Positions 1 to 39,278 of a stretch of DNA of 39,278 bases are shown in pieces. Source of the DNA: a virus. A model generated the notes under the pieces. That model had not been told where the DNA came from. It saw only the letters and a list, made by a program, of their open reading frames with translations, and ran no database searches. Location of the stretch: positions 1 through 39,278 of IMG/VR virus record IMGVR_UViG_3300013132_000002. One strand, 5' to 3'. How positions within the stretch are numbered: position 1 is the stretch's first letter; each line of letters opens with the position of its first letter. The position numbers and the translations under genes are program-made.

Positions 1-123
1 CCATGACCCGCGATGCTTACGCCGAGGAGTGGGGCGACGATCCGGCCAGCTGGCCCAAAGAAGTGCACCAGTGGGAGTTCGACTGGCTCACACCTGACGT
101 TGTCTTCGTGGCCGAGTACTACC
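1..123. repeat. Terminal direct repeat, left copy (circular overlap)
   Basis: These 123 bases are identical to the last 123 bases of the window (39156-39278). The portal reading frame continues in phase across the joined ends, so the repeat reflects a circular or circularly permuted molecule written with an overlap rather than two functional copies. A true short terminal repeat of a linear genome is less likely because the repeat lies inside a gene. Removing one copy leaves about 39,155 bp. Confidence 0.93.
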
Positions 124-15544: not shown

Positions 15545-16192
15545 ATGTTCTACGTCTACGAGCATATTAGGCCAGACACTTCCAGCGTGTTTTACGTTGG
15601 AAAAGGCCATGCTCGTAGATCGACTTCAACCAACAAGCGAAGCGAGTATTGGAAGCGGATTGTTGCAAAGGCTGGCGGCTTTTCTGTTCGCATGGTTGTC
15701 GATAATGTTGACGAAGAATTGGCTTTTTTTATTGAGATGGAGCGTATTGACCAGCTTCGCAGGCTTGGCATCAGACTCTGTAATTTGACTAATGGCGGCG
15801 AAGGGCTGCATGGGCTTAAACACTCTGAGGAAACCAAGCGCAAGATGTCTGTTTCTCAACGTGGCGAAAACCACAATATGTTTGGAAAGCAGCACAGCGA
15901 AGAAACACGAAAACGAATGTCTGAGGCAAAGCGTGGAAAGCCAAAGACTGCGGAACACGCCAGAAAAGTGGCGCAGGCGTTGATTGGCACAAAGCGTAGC
16001 GATGAATCAAAACGCAAGATGTCCGAAGCAAAACTAGGAAAAAAATTGAGTGATGAGCACAGACAGCGTTTGTCTGAAGTCAGGCGAGGAAAAGAACAAG
16101 CCATTGTTGTTTGTCCTCATTGCTCTAAATCAGGCGGCGTGAACACAATGAAACGCTGGCACTTTGAAAACTGTAAACACACTGAAAGGTAA
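15545..16192 (+). CDS. GIY-YIG homing endonuclease with NUMOD3 repeats
   Basis: The 215-residue protein starts FYVYEHI and then VFYVGKG, the two strands that give the GIY-YIG family its name, followed by a helical region with a likely catalytic Glu (FFIEMERIDQL). From about residue 90 there are repeated NUMOD3-type DNA-binding motifs: HSEETKRKMSVSQRG, HSEETRKRMSEAKRG, SDESKRKMSEAKLGKK and SDEHRQRLSEVRRGK. The C-terminus has a Cys/His cluster (VVCPHCSKSGGVNTMKRWHF, then ENCKH) common at the ends of these enzymes. It is a free-standing selfish element. The ribosome site is weak (GAAG), its GC is lower than the genome, and it interrupts the start of the next gene. Confidence 0.92.
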   Translation: MFYVYEHIRPDTSSVFYVGKGHARRSTSTNKRSEYWKRIVAKAGGFSVRMVVDNVDEELAFFIEMERIDQLRRLGIRLCNLTNGGEGLHGLKHSEETKRKMSVSQRGENHNMFGKQHSEETRKRMSEAKRGKPKTAEHARKVAQALIGTKRSDESKRKMSEAKLGKKLSDEHRQRLSEVRRGKEQAIVVCPHCSKSGGVNTMKRWHFENCKHTER

Positions 16193-17825: not shown

Positions 17826-18293
17826 TCAAATCTCCACAATAATCTGTTCCCAGGACCTGCCGGCACCAGTCCACAAGTTTCTGGCCGCCGAGTGCGGGTA
17901 CTCCTCCACATAGACGATCCGTTCACAGCTGGTGTTGAGCAGCAACTTGCAGCAGGTCACGCAGGGACTGGCTGTCACGTAGACCGTGTGGATTTGGTAG
18001 ATGTCCCGACACTGCAGCAGCGCGTTCTGCTCCGCGTGGATCGCTTGGCAGCCATCGAGGTTCGTGCCGCTTGGCGACCTAGCCCCCTCGCAAGCATGAG
18101 GAAAGCCAAGCGGGTGGTACGGGTCGTGCTGATTGCAGTGCGGTAGACCAGCCGCGACCCCGTTGTAGCCGGTGGCCAACACGTGGCCCCGAGCATTCAG
18201 CAGCACACAACCCACCTGACGGCGGCAGCACGTGGCCCGTTGGGCTGTCAGCAAGGCCAGCTTCAGGGCCCACTCATCGCGGCTGGGTCTCAT
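17826..18293 (-). CDS. dCMP deaminase (ComEB/T4 cd-like)
   Basis: The 155-residue enzyme carries the zinc-dependent deaminase motifs His86-Ala-Glu88 (IHAEQNALL) and Pro110-Cys111-Val-Thr-Cys114 (SPCVTCCKLL), plus the upstream CRRQVGCVLLN and ATGYNGVAAG segments of the dCMP deaminase family. It would convert dCMP to dUMP, feeding thymidylate synthesis. The start is the ATG two bases after the TS-like stop; GGGAGGTG upstream supports it. It is the last gene of the leftward nucleotide module. T4 likewise pairs a dCMP deaminase with dCMP hydroxymethylase, so its presence is compatible with either dUMP or dCMP as the partner enzyme's substrate. Confidence 0.9.
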   Translation of the reverse strand: MRPSRDEWALKLALLTAQRATCCRRQVGCVLLNARGHVLATGYNGVAAGLPHCNQHDPYHPLGFPHACEGARSPSGTNLDGCQAIHAEQNALLQCRDIYQIHTVYVTASPCVTCCKLLLNTSCERIVYVEEYPHSAARNLWTGAGRSWEQIIVEI

Positions 18294-18294
18294 G

Positions 18295-19077
18295 TTACAC
18301 CTCCCACCAGCGGCGCGCGTCACCTGGCCGGCTGTCACGCAGATCCTTGAGCTCGGACATGAGGAACTGCGGGTCGTTCCAGAGCAGTTTGGGAGTCTCG
18401 ATTTGATCAAGCACCGTGCTACCAAGGCACATCTTCGCGTCGTCCCAGTTGGTCTCGTACAGGTGGCTGCTGGCCGCCGTCAGGAACAACCGACCGGGTG
18501 ACACAGCGTCGGCAGTCAGCCGGTGCTCGTTCAACAGGCCGCAGACTAGGTGGCTGAGCATGCTGAAGTTGAACACGTCATACGGCACGCCCAGCCAGAC
18601 GTCGCTGGACCGCATGAACACGTGGGCATTGAGCTTGCCACCGCGGATGTTGAAGAACACTGCCACCGTGCACGGCACGTCCTTGGTGTTGGGCGGGCAC
18701 TCACGCCAGATGGTCAGGCCAGCTTGGCGGCTGTCCTCATCTGCCTGCAGTTTCTCGATGATGTACGGCAGCTGCGCCACGATCTTGGGGCCGTAGGCAC
18801 CGAAAAACCGTTCGCCGTCGTCTGAGAAGGCGGCGATGCGGCTGTTGTATGGGGCGATGGTCTCGACCCGGTCGTCGCCAGACAGGATCCAGAACGCCTC
18901 GGCCACCATGAACTTGTAGCTCAGACTGCGATCAGGCACGCGAAGCACCGGCTTCCGCATGTCGACCTCAATGGTCCGCTGCGGAATCTCCTTGGTCAAC
19001 TTGCCCCTGGGCGATACCAGATCCCCATTGGCCAAGATGTCGTTGACGGCATTGAGCCACACTCGTGAAAAGTCCAT
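18295..19077 (-). CDS. Thymidylate synthase homologue with Asn-to-Asp switch; predicted dCMP hydroxymethylase/methylase
   Basis: The 260-residue protein has the ThyA fold pattern: nucleophile Cys136 in DVPCTVAVFF, the MRSSDVWLGVPYDVFNFSML block (residues 155-174), and SSHLYETNWDDA with His205 and Tyr207. In true thymidylate synthases the block reads LGxPFN and the Asn reads uracil; here it is Asp167. Asp at this place is the hallmark of T4 dCMP hydroxymethylase, and Asn-to-Asp mutants of thymidylate synthase act on dCMP. The usual PCH is PCT, also as in the T4 enzyme. The phage has ThyX for dTMP, so this enzyme is probably specialised for 5-hydroxymethyl- or 5-methyl-dCMP. AAGGAG supports the ATG at 19077. 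Confidence 0.82.
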   Translation of the reverse strand: MDFSRVWLNAVNDILANGDLVSPRGKLTKEIPQRTIEVDMRKPVLRVPDRSLSYKFMVAEAFWILSGDDRVETIAPYNSRIAAFSDDGERFFGAYGPKIVAQLPYIIEKLQADEDSRQAGLTIWRECPPNTKDVPCTVAVFFNIRGGKLNAHVFMRSSDVWLGVPYDVFNFSMLSHLVCGLLNEHRLTADAVSPGRLFLTAASSHLYETNWDDAKMCLGSTVLDQIETPKLLWNDPQFLMSELKDLRDSRPGDARRWWEV

Positions 19078-19087
19078 GTCGTGCTCC

Positions 19088-19999
19088 TTAGATGAGGTCC
19101 AGCAGCGGGTACCGCTGGCCATGTTTGAATCGCTTCCAGTTCTGCGGGTGCTGAACGCTTGCCGCCTTGATCTTCAGCCGGTACAGCTGCTGGTAGGCCT
19201 CGGTGCCGAGTGTGATGATGCGCTCAGGGTTCAGGTCGTAGAGCACCGACAGATCTTGGTCGGAGTTCAACCAAAGAATCTGGTCCTCGCCCACCTCGAT
19301 CAGATCGAGCTTGTCAGCCAGCCACTGGCTGCAACCCTCGCCGCTGAATGAAGCGAATGGCCACTGGTAGAACGGGTCACAGTCTTTGCGCTCGGCAAAA
19401 GCCTCGCCAATTAGCACAACGCGCCCATCCCAGTTGCCAGCCGAAGCCAGATCTAACGGGTGCTGGCGCATGCGCAGACCCTCGATCGTGAGAGCCAGTT
19501 TAGTATCGGCAAACAGGTCGCCCTTGGTGTAGTCGTAGTCCAGCATCGGCAGGTCTGTGGCCTGCTCGGCATAGATGTCGTAGACCGTCTTGAGCTGGTG
19601 TTCGTTGTCCAGCATCTCCATGTGCTTGCGGCTGAGGTAGTTGGTCTTGACAGTCTCCCACTCAGGTTGACACTTGACGACCACGGCACCGCAACGCATG
19701 GCCAGACGCTCGAGCATCCGCCGGCTTGCATCAGTCAGTCGGTCGCGGCCCTCGCGGAAGGCCACCCCGTAGGGCACCTCGCTCAACCAGCAGCGATCGA
19801 ACACCACGTCTTGGTAGCCAAGCAGTGCAGGTAGCATGGCCTCCACGTACATGCGACCCAGGTTGCGACTGACTCGCGGCAGAGCCGGGAAGTGCACGTA
19901 CTTGGCGCCGGTCGACTCAGCGAAGACCTTGGCCGCCGTGCTCTTGCCGCCACCGTCAGGGCCTTCGAAGATGGTCAGTTTGCAGCTCACTTTGTCCAT
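19088..19999 (-). CDS. Deoxynucleoside monophosphate kinase fused to UDG-like domain
   Basis: The 303-residue protein has two domains. Residues 1-170 are a thymidylate-kinase-like P-loop enzyme: Walker A at 13-21 (GPDGGGKST), a DRC/LSE segment at 68-74 (FDRCWLSEVPYG), and a lid-like basic helix near 119-130. Residues 190-292 resemble the uracil-DNA glycosylase superfamily: VVLIGEAFAERKD near 194-206, PFASFSGEG, ILWLNSD (241-247), ITLGTEAYQQL (262-272) and VQHPQNWKRF (282-291). Such a fusion is unusual. The kinase could phosphorylate the product of the adjacent TS homologue; the UDG-like part may bind or excise a base. The ATG at 19999 has GGAGGAG upstream and overlaps the previous gene by 13 bases. 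Confidence 0.8.
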   Translation of the reverse strand: MDKVSCKLTIFEGPDGGGKSTAAKVFAESTGAKYVHFPALPRVSRNLGRMYVEAMLPALLGYQDVVFDRCWLSEVPYGVAFREGRDRLTDASRRMLERLAMRCGAVVVKCQPEWETVKTNYLSRKHMEMLDNEHQLKTVYDIYAEQATDLPMLDYDYTKGDLFADTKLALTIEGLRMRQHPLDLASAGNWDGRVVLIGEAFAERKDCDPFYQWPFASFSGEGCSQWLADKLDLIEVGEDQILWLNSDQDLSVLYDLNPERIITLGTEAYQQLYRLKIKAASVQHPQNWKRFKHGQRYPLLDLI

Positions 20000-20385
20000 G
20001 ACAGAATCTCCTCCAGTCGTGCCTCGGGGCCAACCCAACCAACGGGCTTCTTGACGTCAAAGGCGCTGCCCCGCTTGCTGTCCTCAGCCTTGACCACGCG
20101 GACCTTGGCCATGTTGCATGAGTGCACGGCGTGCATGCCAGCATGCCACTGAGCTGGGTTGATGCCAGCAAACAGCGCCGTGCCGTAGGCCACGTAGGCC
20201 AGATCCAGCAAGGCGTCAAAGGCCTTGGTCTTGTTGCCCTCAGCCAGCGCCTCCTTGAGCTCGTCCAGCTCCTCTTGCAGGAACTTGACTCGGAACTCTT
20301 GGGCCGAGGGATCGTTCATGAGCTGATCGTCGGTCCCCATGGGGAGACCGAACTTCTCATGGAATTCAGCGACATTTCCGATCAT
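19987..20385 (-). CDS. MazG/PRA-PH-like nucleotide pyrophosphohydrolase
   Basis: The 132-residue all-alpha protein contains the metal-binding pattern EELDELKEAL (Glu38, Glu39, Glu42) followed by AFDALLDLAYVAYG (Asp57, Asp61), typical of MazG/phosphoribosyl-ATP pyrophosphohydrolase-type NTPases. These hydrolyse (d)NTPs to monophosphates and pyrophosphate. In phages that replace cytosine a dCTPase removes dCTP and yields dCMP for hydroxymethylation; placed next to a dCMP-type TS homologue, this protein is a candidate for that job, though the specificity cannot be read from sequence. The start overlaps the preceding stop (TGATG) and AGGAG is upstream. Confidence 0.82.
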   Translation of the reverse strand: MIGNVAEFHEKFGLPMGTDDQLMNDPSAQEFRVKFLQEELDELKEALAEGNKTKAFDALLDLAYVAYGTALFAGINPAQWHAGMHAVHSCNMAKVRVVKAEDSKRGSAFDVKKPVGWVGPEARLEEILSWTK

Positions 20386-21215
20386 CAGAACGGCGCTCCT
20401 TTCGTGGCTTTGCGGGCAACTGGCTTGACCGGCTTACCGTCAGCGGCCTTGCGGCAGACCCAGAGGTTGTTGCGTGCGTGGTCAGGATACAGGCAGCCAA
20501 AGATGTTGCTGATGGCGTCGTTGTCGAAGTACTGCTCAAGCCCTTGGCGCACCTGCTTGATGGCGTCCAGCATCTTCTTGCCGTCAACACCAGGAATCTG
20601 CGGTTCGACCTTGCCAATGTGCTTGATGTCCATGAACGTGCCGAAGCGGCGCTCGATGGCGTAGCCCGCCTTCTCGATGTAGCCCTGCAGCTCAGGCACG
20701 GTGTACTCATGAATGTGGTTGGCCGCGTGGCGCTTGCCGTCGTAGACCGGCGTCGACAGAAGCAACACGCCGCCCGGCTTGGTGGCTGCGAACATGGCCT
20801 TGAGCAGGTTGATGCCGTGCTCGACCTTCATGTGCTCGACGACCTCATAGTTGACGACGACGTCGAAGCCCTCAGGGCGCGCCTTCAACAGTTCCTTGTA
20901 ACGCTCAACGAAGTTGAACTCGCCATGGAACGTCAGACGCTGGCTGTTGGACGGCTTCAGCTTGTTGAGGTCCACGCCAGTATAGTGGTTGACATGAGCC
21001 GCAGCACCACCGGTGAGAATCTTGCTGAGCGGTTTGTCTTCGCCGCAGCCAACTTCGAGCACGTTGTGCTTGGCAGTGATGAAGCGACGGGCAAAGCTCC
21101 AGCGCCAGAAGTGGGCGGAGTAGTCGCGGTGGAGGGTGCGGCCATGGCCTGCTTCGTGCAGCTGAGTGGTGTCATAGTCACGGGTGTCGCGGGAAACTTC
21201 TTTGACTTTAGGCAT
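20385..21215 (-). CDS. SAM-dependent methyltransferase (class I)
   Basis: The 276-residue protein has motif I NVLEVGCGEDKPL (about residues 51-63), an acidic strand end YTGVDLNKLK, and FDVVVNYEVVEHM followed by KPGGVLLLSTPVYDG, the usual class I methyltransferase layout with SAM bound at the Gly-rich loop. The C-terminal 70 residues are basic (KPVKPVARKATKGAPF). I cannot see a DNA-methylase catalytic motif (DPPY, or the PC of C5 enzymes), so a small-molecule, base or protein substrate is possible. As the first gene of the nucleotide module it may act on a modified nucleotide or DNA base. AAGGAATC precedes the ATG. Confidence 0.8.
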   Translation of the reverse strand: MPKVKEVSRDTRDYDTTQLHEAGHGRTLHRDYSAHFWRWSFARRFITAKHNVLEVGCGEDKPLSKILTGGAAAHVNHYTGVDLNKLKPSNSQRLTFHGEFNFVERYKELLKARPEGFDVVVNYEVVEHMKVEHGINLLKAMFAATKPGGVLLLSTPVYDGKRHAANHIHEYTVPELQGYIEKAGYAIERRFGTFMDIKHIGKVEPQIPGVDGKKMLDAIKQVRQGLEQYFDNDAISNIFGCLYPDHARNNLWVCRKAADGKPVKPVARKATKGAPF

Positions 21216-25310: not shown

Positions 25311-26048
25311 TTAGTACTTGCACTGACCGCCACCGGCAGCCTTGTTGCTGGACCGATAGAAGCACCACCGGCACTTGTCGTTCGGTCGCGGCGCGAACTG
25401 CTTGTCGTTGAGCATCGCCTTGGTCCGCTTCTCCCAGAGCTTCTTGAGCTTAGGGATGTCGGCCCGCGTGAAGACCAGCTCAGCACCAACCTCAGGGTAC
25501 GTGATGCCAAGGTCTAAGTAGGCCAGACGCGGCTTGACCTGCTGGATGTGCTCGTGCAGCAACAGGGCGGCCAGCGCGTAGAGTTCCAACTGCTCGACGT
25601 ACTCCTCATTCATCTCAGGGCGGAACTTGCCTGTCTTCCAGTCAGTGATGATGAGAGTCTCATCGTCATGATGGTGCGCACAATCGAGCTTGATGCGAAG
25701 CCAGCAGTTGATCCAGTCGTCCCACTGGGTCTCGTCCCAGTCCTTGGTGAAGGACCAGTTGTCTTCGACCACCATGCCGTTGATCTTCTTCTTGTACTGC
25801 GCCCGCAACTTCTTGAACTCGTCGGCAAACAACTTGAGCTCAGGTGGCAGCGATCGGCCCTCGCCCTTGATGTACTTCTCGGCCAACTTGTGAATCGCAT
25901 CACCGCGGGCCATGGCCTCGTTGCCGGGCTCACGGATCCGATCGATGGCGCTCAGCTTGAGCTTCAGCGGACACTGCTTGTAGGTGCTGTAGCGGCTGAA
26001 GGACCAGCTCGTCACCTGTTTAATCGGAATCGTTTTCTTGGTCGCCAT
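25311..26048 (-). CDS. PD-(D/E)XK nuclease, Cas4/RecB-like, with four-Cys cluster
   Basis: The ATG at 26048 sits on a TGATG overlap with the polymerase gene and gives 245 residues. The protein begins with SWSFSRYSTYKQCPLKLKLS, the usual first block of RecB-family nucleases. It includes the metal-binding LIITDWKTGKF and then YVEQLELYALA, corresponding to motifs II-III (D-EXK and QxxxY). A Cys in the first block and three near the C-terminus (DKCRWCFYRSSNKAAGGGQCKY region) give the C-n-C-x2-C-n-C pattern of Cas4/AddB iron-sulfur nucleases. It likely works with polymerase in DNA processing or recombination. Confidence 0.85.
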   Translation of the reverse strand: MATKKTIPIKQVTSWSFSRYSTYKQCPLKLKLSAIDRIREPGNEAMARGDAIHKLAEKYIKGEGRSLPPELKLFADEFKKLRAQYKKKINGMVVEDNWSFTKDWDETQWDDWINCWLRIKLDCAHHHDDETLIITDWKTGKFRPEMNEEYVEQLELYALAALLLHEHIQQVKPRLAYLDLGITYPEVGAELVFTRADIPKLKKLWEKRTKAMLNDKQFAPRPNDKCRWCFYRSSNKAAGGGQCKY

Positions 26049-27961
26049 CACAGCACCTTGCCTTTCTTGTCGTAGTCCTGGAGTTCATCCCAGTTGGTTG
26101 ATGAGATGGCGCCTTCGCTCAGAATGGGCACGTCAAACTCGACGGATTCCATGCATTTGCGCAGCACTTCCATTTCTGCTTTGAGGATCTTCTTCGGCAC
26201 GCTGGCTGTGACCTGGTCATGCACGTTGAGGATAATCCTCGCCTCCGGGTGCTTGGCTGCATGGTAGCGAATAATCGCCTCCTTGGTGCAGTCAGCAGCG
26301 GATCCTTGAATCAGGACGTTGACCAGCTTGTAGTCGAATTCCTGAATACGCCCGTTGATGAGCTTCGGCTCTTCGCAGTAGTATTCGCGGCCGCCCCAAG
26401 TGCGGATCGGCTGCTTGGACTTGGCTCTGAGCTTCATGTCTTGGTACATCTGCTTGAGACCAGGGTAGAGCTGCAGAATGGCCTTCTTCAACTCGCTGGA
26501 CTCCTCAACCGTCATGCCGTTGCGCTCGGCCAGCTTGCCCACGCCCATGCCATAGATCAGACCGAGGTTCGTGTTCTTCACCGGCTTCCGGTCGTAGAAC
26601 TTGCCCATCTTCTCAAGTTCGGCCTTGGCGTAGTCGTGGAAGTCAATCCAAGGGTTCTCGAGGTACTTGTCCATCAAGGCACCACCGTCGAAGTGGGCCA
26701 GGATGCGAGGTTCCTGCTGGGAGTAGTCGCGGTCGATCATGACGTGCCCAGCGAAAGGAGTGATGTAGCTGCGCACCTTGGGCAGCGGTGGCAAGTCCTT
26801 GAACGGGCACTTGGGCAGCTTCTTGTCAGGTGCCTCGTGGTGGAAGATCGGCTGAAACTCCTTGGGGATGTTCTGGAAGTTCGGCGTTGAAGACAAGCGA
26901 CCAGTGCGGGTGCCGACGTTGGAGTCACCAGACGGCGTCTTGGTCTGGTTCCAGGTCGTGAAGATCAGACCGCCAGACGCTTCGGCTGTGGCCAACCAAG
27001 GCTGCATGAAGGTGTTCAGGCAGGTGTTTAGCTGCGTGCGGTACTTGAGCACGGCCAGCAGCACCTTGTCGGTCACCCCTTGCAGCAGTGCCTCTTTGTT
27101 CGTCTGGAACTTGCCTGTCGGTGTCCTAGGCAGCAGGTCAGGATCAGCCTTGCCAACCTCCACCATGGCATCGACTAGCTGGGCACCTGAGTCGAGGTTG
27201 ATGTCTGGGTCAGCCTTGAGGGTCTTGACGATCCAGGCGTTGATGGTGTCACGCCACTGGTTGTACATGGCCACGTCGCTGCGCAGACGCTTGAGGTCCA
27301 TGGGCAAACCCTGCCGCTCCATCTCCAGCAGAATAGGCATGAGTTGACGCTCACGATCGTAGGCGACCAGCATACCCCGCTCAGCCGTCTTCTTCCACAG
27401 CATGTTGAAGATCGCCTCGGTGCGATCAACGTCGCCGTTGGCGTACGTGCCCACGAGGTCACCAGGGGCGTAGGCGATGTAGCGGCCGAAGTAGTGGTCT
27501 GAGCTTCGTGATTTGCTGATCTTGACTCCTGGGACCGGCTGGTGCTCGATCAACCAGTCGCCGACTGCGTCACGCTCCTCAGCTTCCCAACCCAGCAATC
27601 GAGTGGCTGCCGGCTTCAAACCAAGCTCAATCTGATGCGGGTCGTCAAGGAACAGCAGGAACAGCGTGTCGTGAATGAGTTTCCAATCTGGGATGGCGAG
27701 GTTGAAGTGCACCTCAGCCACGTCGACGTCGAACTTGCCGTTCTGGAAGAGGACGCCGTCCTTGTGCTTGTAGGCCTTGGCCAACTCAGTGGCCGCGTCT
27801 GACCAACAGCAGTTGTTGCCCACTGGGTGGCCGAAGGCAAAGTACTTGGCCTTCTTGCCTGGGTACTTGATGGACACACCAACCGGCATGGGCGGGTACT
27901 TAGGCCGGCCCTCGATTCCAAATGTCTCGAAGTCGATGGTCACTGGTTTTGGTTGCTTCAT
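26048..27961 (-). CDS. DNA polymerase, family A, with 3'-5' exonuclease domain
   Basis: The 637-residue enzyme has an N-terminal exonuclease domain (DFETFGIEG at 10-18; FQNGKFDVD; TYANGDVDRTEAI) and a polymerase domain: TRTGRLSSTPNFQNIP near 351-366, motif A IDRDYSQQEPR (409-419), motif B RKPVKNTNLGLIYGMG (458-473), and motif C LNVHDQVTAS near 579-588. The residue matching E. coli Phe762 is Leu466. The usual HDE of motif C is HDQ. No 5'-3' exonuclease domain is present. It replicates phage DNA together with the primase-helicase, ligase and nucleases of the same arm. Its ATG overlaps the previous stop (ATGA). Confidence 0.95.
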   Translation of the reverse strand: MKQPKPVTIDFETFGIEGRPKYPPMPVGVSIKYPGKKAKYFAFGHPVGNNCCWSDAATELAKAYKHKDGVLFQNGKFDVDVAEVHFNLAIPDWKLIHDTLFLLFLDDPHQIELGLKPAATRLLGWEAEERDAVGDWLIEHQPVPGVKISKSRSSDHYFGRYIAYAPGDLVGTYANGDVDRTEAIFNMLWKKTAERGMLVAYDRERQLMPILLEMERQGLPMDLKRLRSDVAMYNQWRDTINAWIVKTLKADPDINLDSGAQLVDAMVEVGKADPDLLPRTPTGKFQTNKEALLQGVTDKVLLAVLKYRTQLNTCLNTFMQPWLATAEASGGLIFTTWNQTKTPSGDSNVGTRTGRLSSTPNFQNIPKEFQPIFHHEAPDKKLPKCPFKDLPPLPKVRSYITPFAGHVMIDRDYSQQEPRILAHFDGGALMDKYLENPWIDFHDYAKAELEKMGKFYDRKPVKNTNLGLIYGMGVGKLAERNGMTVEESSELKKAILQLYPGLKQMYQDMKLRAKSKQPIRTWGGREYYCEEPKLINGRIQEFDYKLVNVLIQGSAADCTKEAIIRYHAAKHPEARIILNVHDQVTASVPKKILKAEMEVLRKCMESVEFDVPILSEGAISSTNWDELQDYDKKGKVL

Positions 27962-32004: not shown

Positions 32005-32251
32005 TCAACACCTCGTCGAGTTTGGTGGCGTACCAGATGGCCTTGCGATTGTCCTCGACCGAGTCGGCCTTCTTACCCAGGCGCCACTGGTACTTGATGA
32101 CCTGGCCACGCAGGAAGCCGATGAACTGCTCACGGCCCAGCGCAGCGCGGATGGCGTCGATGCACTCGACCCCGTTGTCGGTCTCGGCGTAGTGCGGCGG
32201 GTGGTTGACCATGTCCTTCTTAGGATCGGTCTTAGTGGTCTTGCGTTGCAT
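31988..32251 (-). CDS. DUF3310 family protein
   Basis: The ATG at 32251 with AGGAG 7 bases upstream gives 87 residues. The protein shows the DUF3310 signature: VNHPPHYAETDNGVECIDAI, then FIGFLRGQVIKYQWRLGKK, then DSVEDNRKAIWYATKLDEVL. The family is very common in phages and is often labelled nucleotide kinase, but I am not aware of firm evidence for that activity. It overlaps the ThyX gene by 20 bases at its start and contains the start of the small membrane gene at its end. Confidence 0.88.
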   Translation of the reverse strand: MQRKTTKTDPKKDMVNHPPHYAETDNGVECIDAIRAALGREQFIGFLRGQVIKYQWRLGKKADSVEDNRKAIWYATKLDEVLNELEA

Positions 32252-32900
32252 TGAGAATCTCCTCGAGTGATGGCATGACATGGAGCAGAGCGAGACGGCA
32301 CATGACCGCAAGCTCACGGTGCTCCTTCTGGGTACCGTTGCCGGCGCGGAGTTGGATGTAGTGGATCCAGCTGCGGATCGAGCCCGCCATGTACAACCGG
32401 CTGACGGTTAGGCCCTCAGGCAAGACTGCCCGGGCCACCTCCTTCGCGATGCCTTGCTCCAAGGCCCATTGGTAGGTCTGGCGGGTCAGCTCGGCGGTTC
32501 GGCTTTGCAGCGTATACCACTGGCGTTGCAGCTCAGCATCGTCGGTCTCAGTGCTGTTCTGCCGGTTCTTGGTGTCTTGCAGACGGACTTCGCGCAGCAT
32601 CACGTCATCCGTGACCTCGGCGTACCGCTGGCTGAACTCCTGGAAGGCGAAGCTGCGATGGCGGAGAATCTGACGGGCGATGTCACGGGTCGTCTGGATC
32701 TCCATGACGGCGTGAGCCATCTCAAACGGCGACCAGTGGTGGTTGCGGGTGAGGTAGTTCAGCAGACGAGGAGCCGTCTCGTGGTTGGCCTGGTTGCCCG
32801 GGTTCGAGACCCGAGCGCAGTAGGCCACCAACTCCTCGCCCGTCTGAACGCCATCAAGCTCGATGGGCTGCGTGAAAGCGATCAGACGGACTTGGCTCAT
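32232..32900 (-). CDS. thyX: Flavin-dependent thymidylate synthase ThyX
   Basis: The 222-residue protein has the ThyX signature RHRSFAFQEFSQRY at residues 80-93, matching the RHRxxSxxxxSxRY-type motif that binds dUMP and FAD; the first Ser position is Ala here but the second (Ser90) and the Arg/Tyr are kept. Further family segments are NHHWSPFEMAHAVMEIQTTR, ARAVLPEGLTVSRLYMAGSI and WIHYIQLR. ThyX makes dTMP from dUMP using methylene-tetrahydrofolate, FAD and NADPH. Its coexistence with the ThyA-like protein at 18295 implies separate jobs. The ATG overlaps the previous stop (ATGA). Confidence 0.94.
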   Translation of the reverse strand: MSQVRLIAFTQPIELDGVQTGEELVAYCARVSNPGNQANHETAPRLLNYLTRNHHWSPFEMAHAVMEIQTTRDIARQILRHRSFAFQEFSQRYAEVTDDVMLREVRLQDTKNRQNSTETDDAELQRQWYTLQSRTAELTRQTYQWALEQGIAKEVARAVLPEGLTVSRLYMAGSIRSWIHYIQLRAGNGTQKEHRELAVMCRLALLHVMPSLEEILNATQDH

Positions 32901-33111: not shown

Positions 33112-33399
33112 TCAGTCGCCCTCCACGATGGTCCAGTCCTCGGCCAGCATGTCAGACTGGCTTGCCAACCAACCGGGCAGCATTGCGCGACGCCCTTCGG
33201 CATTTGTCGTCCACATATCGATGTGCGGCAGAATTTCGCATTCGCTCATGCCAAGGTGGGTATGATAAGGTGTGCCTTCTTTGAGGATTGCCGGTTTGGT
33301 CCCAGGTACGAGGATCAACCACATACCCTTGCCATTCCAACCAGCACGAGAAACCTTTTTGCCTTCCTTCAAGGCTGTGATAGCTTCACCGAAATTCAT
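33112..33399 (-). CDS. DUF2829 family protein
   Basis: The 95-residue protein matches the DUF2829 pattern: MNFGEAITALKEGKKVSRAG, then WNGKGMWLILVPG, SECEILPHIDMWTTN and PGWLASQSDMLAEDWTIVE. The family is widespread in phages and bacteria and its biochemical role is unsettled. AAGGAG precedes the ATG by 6 bases. It is the first gene after an intrinsic terminator, so transcription from P4 must read through to reach it and the ThyX gene. Confidence 0.9.
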   Translation of the reverse strand: MNFGEAITALKEGKKVSRAGWNGKGMWLILVPGTKPAILKEGTPYHTHLGMSECEILPHIDMWTTNAEGRRAMLPGWLASQSDMLAEDWTIVEGD

Positions 33400-38593: not shown

Positions 38594-39278
38594 ATGGCCA
38601 GAATGTCAAAAGCCGAGCGCCACGCTCAAATCCACTATGAAGCCATGGTGGAGTTCGACAACATCCAATCTGCCTTGCGTGACGAACGTCTGCAGTGTCT
38701 GCAGGACCGCCGCTTTTACTCGATCGCCGGTGCCCAGTGGGAAGGTCCGCTGGCCAAGCAGTTCGAGAACAAGCCGAAGTTCGAGGTCAACAAGATCCAC
38801 CTGTCGGTCATCCGCATCATCAACGAGTACCGCAACAACCGCATCACTGTCGACTTTGTGAGCAAGGAAGGCGCGGAGTACGACAAGCTGGCCGACACCT
38901 GCGACGACCTGTATCGCGCCGATGAGCAAGACAGCGTGGCTGATGAGGCCTACGACAACGCCTTCGAGGAAGCCGTGGCCGGTGGCATCGGGGCTTGGCG
39001 CCTGCGGACCGAGTACGAGAACGACGAGGATCCGGAAGACGAGCGCCAGCGCATCCGCATCGAACCGATCTTTGACGCCGACAGCTCGGTGTTCTTCGAC
39101 CTGAACGCCAAGCGGCAGGACAAGTCCGACGCCAAGCGCTGCTTCGTGCTGACCGCCATGACCCGCGATGCTTACGCCGAGGAGTGGGGCGACGATCCGG
39201 CCAGCTGGCCCAAAGAAGTGCACCAGTGGGAGTTCGACTGGCTCACACCTGACGTTGTCTTCGTGGCCGAGTACTACC
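38594..39278 (+). CDS. Portal protein, P22 type (N-terminal part; continues at position 3)
   Basis: The ATG at 38594 has AGGA 8 bases upstream. The first 188 codons end at 39157, and the codon at 39158 equals the one at position 3, so the frame continues into 1-1517. The start (MARMSKAERHAQIHYEAMVE) and the segments RRFYSIAGAQWEGP, NKPKFEVNKIHLSVIRIINE and EPIFDADSSVFFDLNAKRQD are typical of P22-type portals. It follows terL directly. The last 123 bases duplicate the window start. Confidence 0.9.
   Translation, partial: MARMSKAERHAQIHYEAMVEFDNIQSALRDERLQCLQDRRFYSIAGAQWEGPLAKQFENKPKFEVNKIHLSVIRIINEYRNNRITVDFVSKEGAEYDKLADTCDDLYRADEQDSVADEAYDNAFEEAVAGGIGAWRLRTEYENDEDPEDERQRIRIEPIFDADSSVFFDLNAKRQDKSDAKRCFVLTAMTRDAYAEEWGDDPASWPKEVHQWEFDWLTPDVVFVAEYY
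39156..39278. repeat. Terminal direct repeat, right copy (circular overlap)
   Basis: This segment is identical to positions 1-123. See the left copy for the interpretation as circular closure inside the portal gene. Confidence 0.93.

What the first reader, a model, noticed from the sequence alone, without database searches (positions are those of the whole stretch)
18295..19077. ThyA-family enzyme with Asn-to-Asp switch alongside a separate ThyX: predicted dCMP hydroxymethylase or methylase
The sequence shows LGVPYD where thymidylate synthases have LGxPFN, and PCT in place of PCH at the nucleophile (Cys136). It is established that Asp at this place determines dCMP specificity in T4 dCMP hydroxymethylase and that the Asn-to-Asp change in thymidylate synthase gives dCMP activity. 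ThyX (32232-32900) covers dTMP synthesis, which frees this paralogue. Inference: the phage incorporates 5-hydroxymethyl- or 5-methylcytosine. I see no TET-type dioxygenase or glucosyltransferase.
Basis: partly seen in the sequence, partly recalled or inferred. Interest (0 to 1): 0.88.

Follow-up and report, generated by a model that had tools for sequence, protein, structure and literature searches.

The report
Phage enzyme making a cytosine variant
A small virus of bacteria carries a changed copy of a DNA-building enzyme that most likely makes hydroxymethyl-cytosine instead of thymine, inside a conserved gene set whose tightly linked methyl-transferring enzyme may finish it into a still undescribed DNA letter that shields viral DNA from bacterial cutting enzymes.

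Summary
In detail: minus-strand gene 18295-19077 is a ThyA homologue with Asp at the dUMP-reading Asn (E. coli 177) and Cys-Thr at Cys146-His147. It is unlikely to be a thymidylate synthase. Asp177 marks dCMP enzymes. The residue three before the catalytic Cys, named as water activator in the T4 dCMP hydroxymethylase structure paper, is Asp in the window and 80 of 80 relatives, Leu in 80 of 80 ordinary viral ThyAs, Asn in 8 of 8 Xp12-type enzymes. I therefore call it a dCMP hydroxymethylase, not a methylase. The methyltransferase lies near 47 of 54 such genes and 0 of 61 ordinary thyA genes. Phage AXL3, isolated, with the same operon, has DNA that only 2 of 37 enzymes cut, both at A/T-only sites, and it resists enzymes that cut 5mC DNA. 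Novel reading: the methyltransferase caps 5hmC, perhaps as 5-methoxymethylcytosine. The final base is unproven; LC-MS of AXL3 DNA would decide.

The parts
18295..19077 (-). ThyA-family pyrimidine hydroxymethylase, predicted dCMP 5-hydroxymethylase (frame open from 19122)
19088..20038 (-). thymidylate-kinase-like dNMP kinase (likely start ATG at 19999) with a C-terminal divergent uracil-DNA-glycosylase-like domain; predicted 5hm-dCMP kinase
   Evidence: phrog_761 1e-15; model pLDDT 88, best VIA-align match 3kb2 Z 14.2, rmsd 3.1, 163 aligned, thymidylate kinases at Z 13 to 14; UDG-like domain
19987..20385 (-). MazG/PRA-PH all-alpha NTP pyrophosphatase, predicted to remove unmodified dCTP
   Evidence: PF01503 1e-11, phrog_671 4.9e-23; 43 of 54 loci
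20385..21215 (-). class I SAM methyltransferase, candidate enzyme that modifies 5hmC further
   Evidence: PF13489 1.8e-13; linkage; model pLDDT 87
17826..18293 (-). dCMP deaminase (start ATG directly after the ThyA-like gene)
   Evidence: PF00383 5.8e-21, phrog_174 4.1e-40; 50 of 54 loci
32232..32900 (-). ThyX flavin-dependent thymidylate synthase, supplies dTMP
   Evidence: PF02511 7.7e-39; in 15 of 44 records searched, window included

Best explanation
The gene encodes a dCMP 5-hydroxymethylase that works like T4 gp42. The active-site Cys adds to C6 of dCMP, Asp177 (E. coli numbering) reads and protonates N3, methylene-tetrahydrofolate supplies the one-carbon unit, and the Asp three residues before the Cys activates water, so the product is 5-hydroxymethyl-dCMP rather than a methylated nucleotide. 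In the same operon the kinase domain would raise 5hm-dCMP to the diphosphate, the MazG-like enzyme would remove dCTP, and dCMP deaminase plus ThyX would cover dTTP. The phage polymerase then builds DNA with modified C in place of C, which blocks restriction enzymes. The residue facts, operon, linkage and homologies are shown; the substrate, product and complete replacement of C are inferred. Second, weaker step (about even odds): the linked SAM methyltransferase modifies the hydroxymethyl product, so the final base is a methylated 5hmC derivative.
For: Asp177 in 80 of 80 relatives and in 69 of 69 ThyAs lying in the flanks of 79 methyltransferase-scan loci. Asp three before Cys in the window, 80 of 80 and 69 of 69, against Leu in 80 of 80 ordinary viral ThyAs and Asn in 8 of 8 Xp12-type enzymes; no search peptide covered this residue. 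In T4 gp42 that Asp (145) is reported to activate the water, D145N abolishes activity, TS has Leu there, and the authors offer it as part of a hydroxymethylase signature (PMC6400193, passages). Best solved-structure match is CMP 5-hydroxymethylase MilA, 3.6e-18, ahead of every thymidylate synthase. Bit score far below the cut-off of all 8 TS equivalogs hit (best 69.9 against 174.55). Tree with columns 147 and 177 masked: clade 100/99, on the side of the SPO1 and Yuavirus dUMP hydroxymethylases (84/91), while ordinary ThyA and Xp12-type enzymes group on the other side (87/63). AXL1-type DHFR in 0 of 44 records of the window's family against 6 of 8 Xp12-type records. Operon genes near 54 D-type versus 61 N-type loci, at 60 bits or more: deaminase 50/2, pyrophosphatase 43/2, kinase 37/0, methyltransferase 47/0. 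MetaGPA linked Asp177 and loss of His147 to cytosine-modified contigs (PMC8670742, passages). AXL3 DNA, same operon, resists 35 of 37 enzymes and is cut only by TasI and Tru1I (PMC7504290, passages). GC-containing 6-mer palindromes are less avoided in the D-type loci, observed/expected 0.89 versus 0.72, 35 versus 61 dereplicated loci.
Against: I found no biochemistry on this protein or a close relative. The second T4 signature residue, Ser94 (two before the Tyr), is Gly here; SPO1 (Ala) and the Yuavirus enzyme (Gly) also lack Ser, so it is not general. The key tree branches are not starred (84/91, 87/63) and T4 gp42 itself is a long branch that cannot be placed. Xp12's own enzyme was not available; the Xp12-type group is represented by AXL1 and 8 contigs, and 2 of those 8 lack the DHFR. 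4-base AT-only palindromes also differ slightly in the same direction (1.01 versus 0.97, p = 0.03), so the restriction signal is not perfectly C-specific, and the control phages differ in host. The AXL3 digestion is from a relative with 56% identity in this protein. ThyX is in only 15 of 44 records. Seven of 54 loci lack the methyltransferase. All relative sets except the 8 Xp12-type contigs are capped best-80 lists.
Confidence: 0.85

Rival explanations
1. dCMP methylase: it methylates dCMP as the Xp12 enzyme does, so the DNA holds 5-methylcytosine.
For: Asp177 alone is reported to give 5mdCMP when put into ordinary TS (PMC8670742, passage). Xp12-type phages share the MazG-like gene and dCMP deaminase next door (8 of 8 each).
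Against: Asn, not Asp, stands three before Cys in 8 of 8 Xp12-type enzymes, and Pro, not Thr, follows the Cys. AXL1-type DHFR is in 6 of 8 Xp12-type records and 0 of 44 of the window's family. AXL3 DNA was tested with KpnI and Eam1105I and not cut, though the 28.8 kb that I hold has 13 and 8 sites. Xp12 (5mC) DNA is cut completely by KpnI and AhdI, and AXL1 DNA partially by KpnI and Eam1105I (PMC7653180, PMC9206674, passages). That AhdI and Eam1105I share a site is recalled.
Confidence: 0.08
2. dCMP hydroxymethylase as in the best explanation, but the methyltransferase acts elsewhere (host RNA, a small molecule or a protein) and the final base is plain 5hmC.
For: Its closest families by profile are small-molecule, RNA and protein methyltransferases (protein lysine methyltransferase, UbiG, Hen1), in NCBIfam all far under the cut-offs, and Foldseek matches are generic. 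Some D-type loci show no hit to this methyltransferase and none of the replacing trio (L072, L073). Plain 5hmC already blocks most enzymes: T4gt DNA resisted 186 of 227 (PMC7653180, passage).
Against: Linkage to this one gene is extreme: 73 of 79 methyltransferase loci (the best of 235 found) have an Asp177 ThyA in flank or record; of the other 6, two are whole contigs of 5 and 7 kb, two lie in records of 13 and 14 kb, and two in records of 38 and 39 kb of unknown completeness. 0 of 61 ordinary thyA loci have it. It was not found together with a PLP-enzyme trio.
Confidence: 0.4
3. dUMP hydroxymethylase making 5-hydroxymethyluracil, as the PW916 record labels its homologue.
For: The clade groups with the SPO1 and Yuavirus dUMP enzymes (84/91); PW916 annotation and paper (PMC9414467, passages).
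Against: Those enzymes keep Asn177; this clade has Asp in 80 of 80. AXL3 DNA is cut at AATT and TTAA sites but by none of the 35 tested enzymes with G/C in their sites (PMC7504290, passages).
Confidence: 0.04
4. Ordinary thymidylate synthase, as in the AXL3 paper.
For: Same Pfam family; catalytic Cys, Glu, Tyr and several ligand residues conserved.
Against: Asp177, Thr147, Asp three before Cys, no residue aligned with the C-terminal end of E. coli TS, scores far under all TS equivalog cut-offs hit.
Confidence: 0.02

Closest known systems
Stenotrophomonas phage AXL3 gp28 and its operon (gp27-gp31); Pseudoxanthomonas phage PW916
   Same: Same five-gene operon and order; CT/D active site; 56% identity in the enzyme, 75% in the methyltransferase
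   Different: Genomes of 47.5 and 47.8 kb; the AXL3 authors read gp28 as thymidylate synthase, the PW916 record as dUMP hydroxymethyltransferase; AXL3 authors say the modification is unknown (PMC7504290, passages)
T4 dCMP hydroxymethylase gp42
   Same: Cys-Thr, Asp179, Asp145 and Glu60 equivalents
   Different: Very distant (33% over 73 aa); T4 Ser94 replaced by Gly; T4 decorates with glucose, here a methyltransferase is linked
MilA, CMP 5-hydroxymethylase of mildiomycin biosynthesis (5jnh, 5b6d)
   Same: Best sequence match among solved structures; D-V-x-C-T motif and Asp at the base-reading place
   Different: MilA prefers the ribonucleotide through Lys133 and Ala176 (PMC5175136, passages); the window enzyme has Arg and Ser at these places
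Xp12-type dCMP methylase (AXL1 gp63 and 8 contigs; Xp12's own record not held)
   Same: Asp177; MazG-like gene and dCMP deaminase next door
   Different: Cys-Pro, Asn three before Cys, DHFR neighbour in 6 of 8, no methyltransferase or kinase hit in 8 of 8; separate clade 100/99. That this enzyme methylates is inferred from Xp12's 5mC
SPO1 gp29 and Yuavirus dUMP hydroxymethylases
   Same: Asp three before Cys; same side of the tree
   Different: Asn177 and Cys-Asn, uracil substrate
MetaGPA class of Asp177 ThyA in cytosine-modified metavirome contigs (PMC8670742)
   Same: Position 177 Asp and position 147 not His; PRA-PH and dCMP deaminase neighbours
   Different: That study followed a carbamoyltransferase; 'methyltransferase' has no occurrence in its main text

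Membership tests
Pyrimidine (dCMP) hydroxymethylase | Asp at the dUMP-reading Asn (T4 Asp179, E. coli 177) | tested here: met
   Window plus 80 of 80 relatives; aligned with T4 Asp179
Pyrimidine (dCMP) hydroxymethylase | Acidic water-activating residue three before the catalytic Cys (T4 Asp145) | tested here: met
   Asp in window and 80 of 80; Leu in 80 of 80 TS-type, Asn in 8 of 8 Xp12-type
Pyrimidine (dCMP) hydroxymethylase | Ser two before the catalytic Tyr (T4 Ser94; Thr in some phages) | tested here: not met
   Gly in the window; Ala in SPO1 gp29 and Gly in the Yuavirus enzyme too. Hence filed as 'works like', not as a member of the T4 gp42 subfamily
Pyrimidine (dCMP) hydroxymethylase | Catalytic Cys, Glu58 and Tyr94 equivalents | tested here: met
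   Cys151, Glu75 and the Tyr present in the window; in relatives Cys 80, Glu 77 and Tyr 79 of 80, rest mostly gaps
Pyrimidine (dCMP) hydroxymethylase | Makes 5hm-dCMP and tetrahydrofolate in vitro | not testable with these tools
   Needs purified protein
Thymidylate synthase ThyA | Asn177 and His147 | tested here: not met
   Asp and Thr
Thymidylate synthase ThyA | Scores over an NCBIfam TS equivalog cut-off | tested here: not met
   Best 69.9 bits against 174.55; 8 equivalogs hit, none over its cut-off
Thymidylate synthase ThyA | C-terminal folate-covering tail | tested here: not met
   No residue aligned with E. coli Ile264 in the window or in 80 of 80
Xp12-type dCMP methylase | Cys-Pro and Asn three before Cys | tested here: not met
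   Thr and Asp; the group is AXL1 plus 8 contigs, all 8 Pro and Asn
Xp12-type dCMP methylase | Phage DHFR nearby (not strict: 6 of 8) | tested here: not met
   0 of 44 records including the window; PF00186 also 0 of 44, but that model finds only 1 of the 8 Xp12-type records
T4-like cytosine replacement pathway | Hydroxymethylase, dNMP kinase, dCTP-removing pyrophosphatase, dCMP deaminase together (T4 set recalled) | tested here: inconclusive
   Homologues of all four classes in one operon; substrates of kinase and pyrophosphatase not shown
T4-like cytosine replacement pathway | Glucosyltransferase on 5hmC | tested here: not met
   None in Pfam scans of 30 predicted window proteins or PHROG scans; most structural genes not scanned

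The most novel reading that the evidence does not exclude
The linked SAM methyltransferase O-methylates the hydroxymethyl group made by this enzyme (or N4-methylates the base), so that these phages, AXL3 included, carry an undescribed DNA base, most simply 5-methoxymethylcytosine, in place of cytosine. In sister phages a PLP-enzyme trio takes its place and builds a different 5hmC derivative. The cassette thus has an exchangeable finishing module.
Probability: 0.38. Interest if true: 0.82.

Novelty: new variant of a known kind. Interest (0 to 1): 0.62.

Why it matters
If right, a family of small phages, with named members from springs and soil, replaces cytosine with a 5hmC-derived base using a compact five-gene cassette, and an isolated phage (AXL3), reported in 2020 to have restriction-proof DNA of unknown chemistry, can settle the question with one LC-MS run. 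A methyl-capped 5hmC would, as far as my searches go, be a new natural DNA base, expected to escape enzymes that grip the free hydroxyl. The residue code seen here (Asp or Asn at 177; Asp, Asn or Leu three before Cys; Thr, Pro, His or Asn after it) would give a usable rule to read substrate and product from sequence: dCMP or dUMP, hydroxymethyl or methyl.

Tried and rejected
ThyX as a required partner: ThyX in 15 of 44 records, window included, and a second, ordinary ThyA in 1 of 44, so not a rule. DHFR by Pfam PF00186 alone: 0 of 44, but the model found only 1 of 8 Xp12-type records, so I repeated with the AXL1 protein. That protein is no general DHFR probe either: it found none near 80 ordinary thyA loci. 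Fold searches: the methyltransferase model matches generic class I methyltransferases; CmoM is first at Z 19.5 (rmsd 4.4, 215 aligned), tied with unrelated rows, so I draw no function from it. Weak hits to O-methyltransferase families (UbiG, Hen1, CmoB) are suggestive only, since the PDB profile list is headed by a protein lysine methyltransferase and holds N-methyltransferases too. The methyltransferase as a CmoA-type carboxy-SAM synthase (idea from PMC12783734, outline and passages) was considered; no row shown is named CmoA, which does not exclude it. A C5-cytosine methyltransferase homologue in L052 as a substitute for the methyltransferase: rejected, because it also co-occurs with it. No paper with at least two of 'methoxymethylcytosine', '5-methoxymethyl' and 'phage' in the library; none with at least four of five terms for a thymidylate kinase-UDG fusion; the listings show no title on this operon. 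I did not read those papers through.

Neighbour counts use the 54 of 80 D-type and 61 of 80 N-type loci with at least 4 kb upstream and 2 kb downstream, at 60 bits or more; one control locus (L192) has a 25-bit methyltransferase hit below that line. The palindrome test uses loci over 8 kb, dereplicated at 70% ThyA identity (35 of 76 and 61 of 67). The tree used 58 chosen rows. ThyX, second-ThyA and DHFR searches used 44 records: the window, 42 of the 80 ThyA-scan loci and one methyltransferase-scan locus.

Full report
What is there. It belongs to Pfam Thymidylat_synt at 4.2e-22 but reaches the cut-off of none of the 8 NCBIfam thymidylate synthase equivalogs that it hits (best 69.9 bits against 174.55). 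Its best match among solved structures is MilA, a CMP 5-hydroxymethylase, ahead of all thymidylate synthases. The window is a virus record with an exact 123-bp direct repeat at its two ends, so it is probably a complete genome of about 39.2 kb.

Residues. I aligned the protein with E. coli ThyA, a T-even td thymidylate synthase (RB14), T4 gp42, SPO1 gp29, a Yuavirus dUMP hydroxymethylase, AXL1 gp63 (stand-in for its near relative Xp12, whose record is not held) and 80 IMG/VR relatives, the best of 110 found. Asp stands at E. coli Asn177 in 80 of 80, Thr at His147 in 79 of 80 (one Ser), and the nucleophile Cys is in 80 of 80. One of the six search peptides contains the Asp, so the 80 of 80 is partly selected; the methyltransferase scan below is free of that. 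T4 gp42 has the same Cys-Thr and Asp; the two dUMP hydroxymethylases have Cys-Asn and Asn; AXL1 has Cys-Pro and Asp. MetaGPA found exactly positions 177 and 147 as the two that best separate ThyA of cytosine-modified from unmodified metavirome contigs (PMC8670742, passages).

Hydroxymethylase or methylase. The T4 gp42 ternary-complex paper (PMC6400193, passages) names the Asp three residues before the catalytic Cys as the activator of the water that becomes the hydroxyl. D145N abolishes activity, TS has Leu there, and the authors propose the Asp, with a Ser near the Tyr, as a hydroxymethylase signature. In one search this residue is Asp in the window, in 80 of 80 relatives, in 69 of 69 ThyAs of the methyltransferase scan, in T4 gp42, SPO1 gp29 and the Yuavirus enzyme; Leu in 80 of 80 ordinary viral ThyAs; and Asn in 8 of 8 Xp12-type enzymes and AXL1, the group whose type phage has 5-methylcytosine. 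The Ser is Gly in the window; SPO1 gp29 and the Yuavirus enzyme lack Ser as well. A tree with columns 147 and 177 masked puts the window clade (31 rows, 100/99) on the side of the SPO1 and Yuavirus enzymes (84/91) and the Xp12-type and ordinary ThyAs on the other side (87/63); neither deep branch is starred and T4 gp42 is a long branch. A methylating enzyme of this family makes dihydrofolate. AXL1-type DHFR is in 6 of 8 Xp12-type records and in 0 of 44 records of the window's family with the same query. ThyX, present here, does not make dihydrofolate either (recalled).

The operon. In transcription order on the minus strand: class I SAM methyltransferase (20385-21215), MazG/PRA-PH pyrophosphatase (19987-20385), thymidylate-kinase-like protein (19088-20038), the hydroxymethylase, dCMP deaminase (17826-18293). 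AXL3, PW916 and the Manatee Spring phages ctUtU524 and ct3Et533 show the same order. Around 54 D-type loci with enough flank, deaminase was found in 50, methyltransferase in 47, pyrophosphatase in 43 and kinase in 37; around 61 ordinary viral thyA loci, in 2, 0, 2 and 0 (60 bits or more; Fisher p from 3e-17 to 3e-25, relatedness not corrected). The kinase domain is sound by structure (pLDDT 88; best VIA-align match 3kb2 at Z 14.2, rmsd 3.1, 163 aligned, with thymidylate kinases at 13 to 14). Its C-terminal 120 residues look like a divergent UDG-superfamily domain: PF03167 at 2e-6 in one relative and 0.0014 in another, no Pfam hit in the window's own copy; of 27 weak PDB profile hits (best E 0.0038), 26 are named UDG or are entries that I take for UDGs (a TM0511 'hypothetical' and 'SPO1 polymerase-related' proteins).

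The methyltransferase. An independent scan with its profile kept 79 loci, the best of 235. Of these, 69 have a ThyA in the flank, all 69 with Asp177, 68 with Thr147 and one with His147. Four more have an Asp177-Thr147 ThyA elsewhere in the record. In the remaining 6 none was found: two whole contigs of 5 and 7 kb, two records of 13 and 14 kb, and two of 38 and 39 kb whose completeness I do not know. Forty of the 79 share their methyltransferase sequence with a locus of the ThyA scan; of the other 39, 30 have a ThyA in the flank. Among 50,697 named phage records it occurs in 5 (4 phages) at E 1e-5, each with a Cys-Thr/Asp ThyA. Seven of the 80 D-type loci carry instead a trio (an unknown PHROG family, a PLP-dependent PALP-fold enzyme and an unknown protein), and in none of these 7 was the methyltransferase found; two of the 7 (L055, L067) have too little upstream DNA to tell. 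The trio is in 0 of 79 methyltransferase loci and 0 of 80 controls. The seven are two or three lineages, and a crude chance figure for three is 0.016, so this is suggestive only. L072 and L073 show neither. A C5-cytosine methyltransferase homologue sits in the slot in L052 but also co-occurs with the methyltransferase in 2 of 80 and 13 of 79 loci (some are the same contigs), so it is not a substitute. NCBIfam families that the methyltransferase weakly resembles, all far under cut-off, include the O-methyltransferases UbiG, Hen1 and CmoB, but the PDB list is headed by a protein lysine methyltransferase. I infer, with about even odds, that it acts on the hydroxymethyl product.

Evidence on DNA. 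AXL3 virion DNA was cut by 2 of 37 enzymes, TasI and Tru1I, whose sites have only A and T (PMC7504290, passages). The panel included KpnI and Eam1105I, with 13 and 8 sites in the 28.8 kb that I hold. Xp12 5mC-DNA is cut completely by KpnI and AhdI (PMC7653180, passages) and AXL1 DNA partially by KpnI and Eam1105I (PMC9206674, passages). AXL3 therefore seems not to carry plain 5mC. AXL3 is a relative, not the window. As a sequence-based check, 6-base palindromes with G or C are less avoided in the D-type loci (median observed/expected 0.89, n = 35) than in ordinary-ThyA loci (0.72, n = 61; p = 3e-9; GC-adjusted difference 0.159 +/- 0.026), while AT-only 6-mers do not differ (0.86 versus 0.88 pooled). 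4-mers agree (0.98 versus 0.89), but AT-only 4-mers also differ slightly (1.01 versus 0.97, p = 0.03). The window itself has 0.87 for GC-containing 6-mers and 6 AT-only 6-mers where 17.5 are expected. The two sets differ in hosts, so this is supporting evidence only.

Verdict. Reading it as a dCMP enzyme is well supported, and 'hydroxymethylase' is now much better supported than 'methylase'. ThyX as the reason is only part of the picture. The likely novelty is the linked methyltransferase and the base it may make. The kind (ThyA paralogue for modified cytosine) is known; the operon with a methyltransferase is, as far as my searches go, an undescribed variant.

Noticed in passing
L054:3751-6808, L056:9130-11991, L063:9130-11847: A trio of phrog_13881 (unknown), a PLP-dependent PALP-fold enzyme (phrog_7093) and an unknown protein sits beside the Asp177 ThyA in 7 of 80 loci, in none of them with the methyltransferase found: perhaps another 5hmC hypermodification pathway.
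   Followed up: partly
window 19088-19453 (minus): The dNMP kinase carries a C-terminal divergent uracil-DNA-glycosylase-like domain, seen in many relatives; a search for papers on such a kinase-UDG fusion found none.
   Followed up: partly
L052:6553-8001, also L035, L042 and 13 of 79 methyltransferase loci: A C5-cytosine DNA methyltransferase homologue (PF00145) near the cassette in some phages; could be a CmoX-like enzyme or a true methylase.
   Followed up: no
window 1-123 and 39156-39278: Exact 123-bp direct terminal repeat, so the record is probably a complete genome of 39,155 bp.
   Followed up: partly
window 33112-33399 (minus): Tad2-like protein (PF11195, 2.2e-26), the Thoeris anti-defence family; perhaps another counter-defence gene in the same phage.
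   Followed up: no
window 25311-26051 (minus): PD-(D/E)XK nuclease with weak Cas4 similarity beside the DNA polymerase, as in AXL3, whose authors link Cas4-like nucleases to modified DNA.
   Followed up: no
window 15545-16192 (plus): Homing endonuclease (phrog_314, 1.5e-24) in the structural region.
   Followed up: no
IMG/VR contig of L123 and L203: One phage record carries both an ordinary CH/N ThyA and the Cys-Thr/Asp ThyA with its methyltransferase; there the ordinary ThyA may play the part that ThyX plays here.
   Followed up: no
L155:7526-8458: A single Asp177 ThyA that keeps His147 while having the methyltransferase and operon: a natural intermediate at position 147.
   Followed up: no
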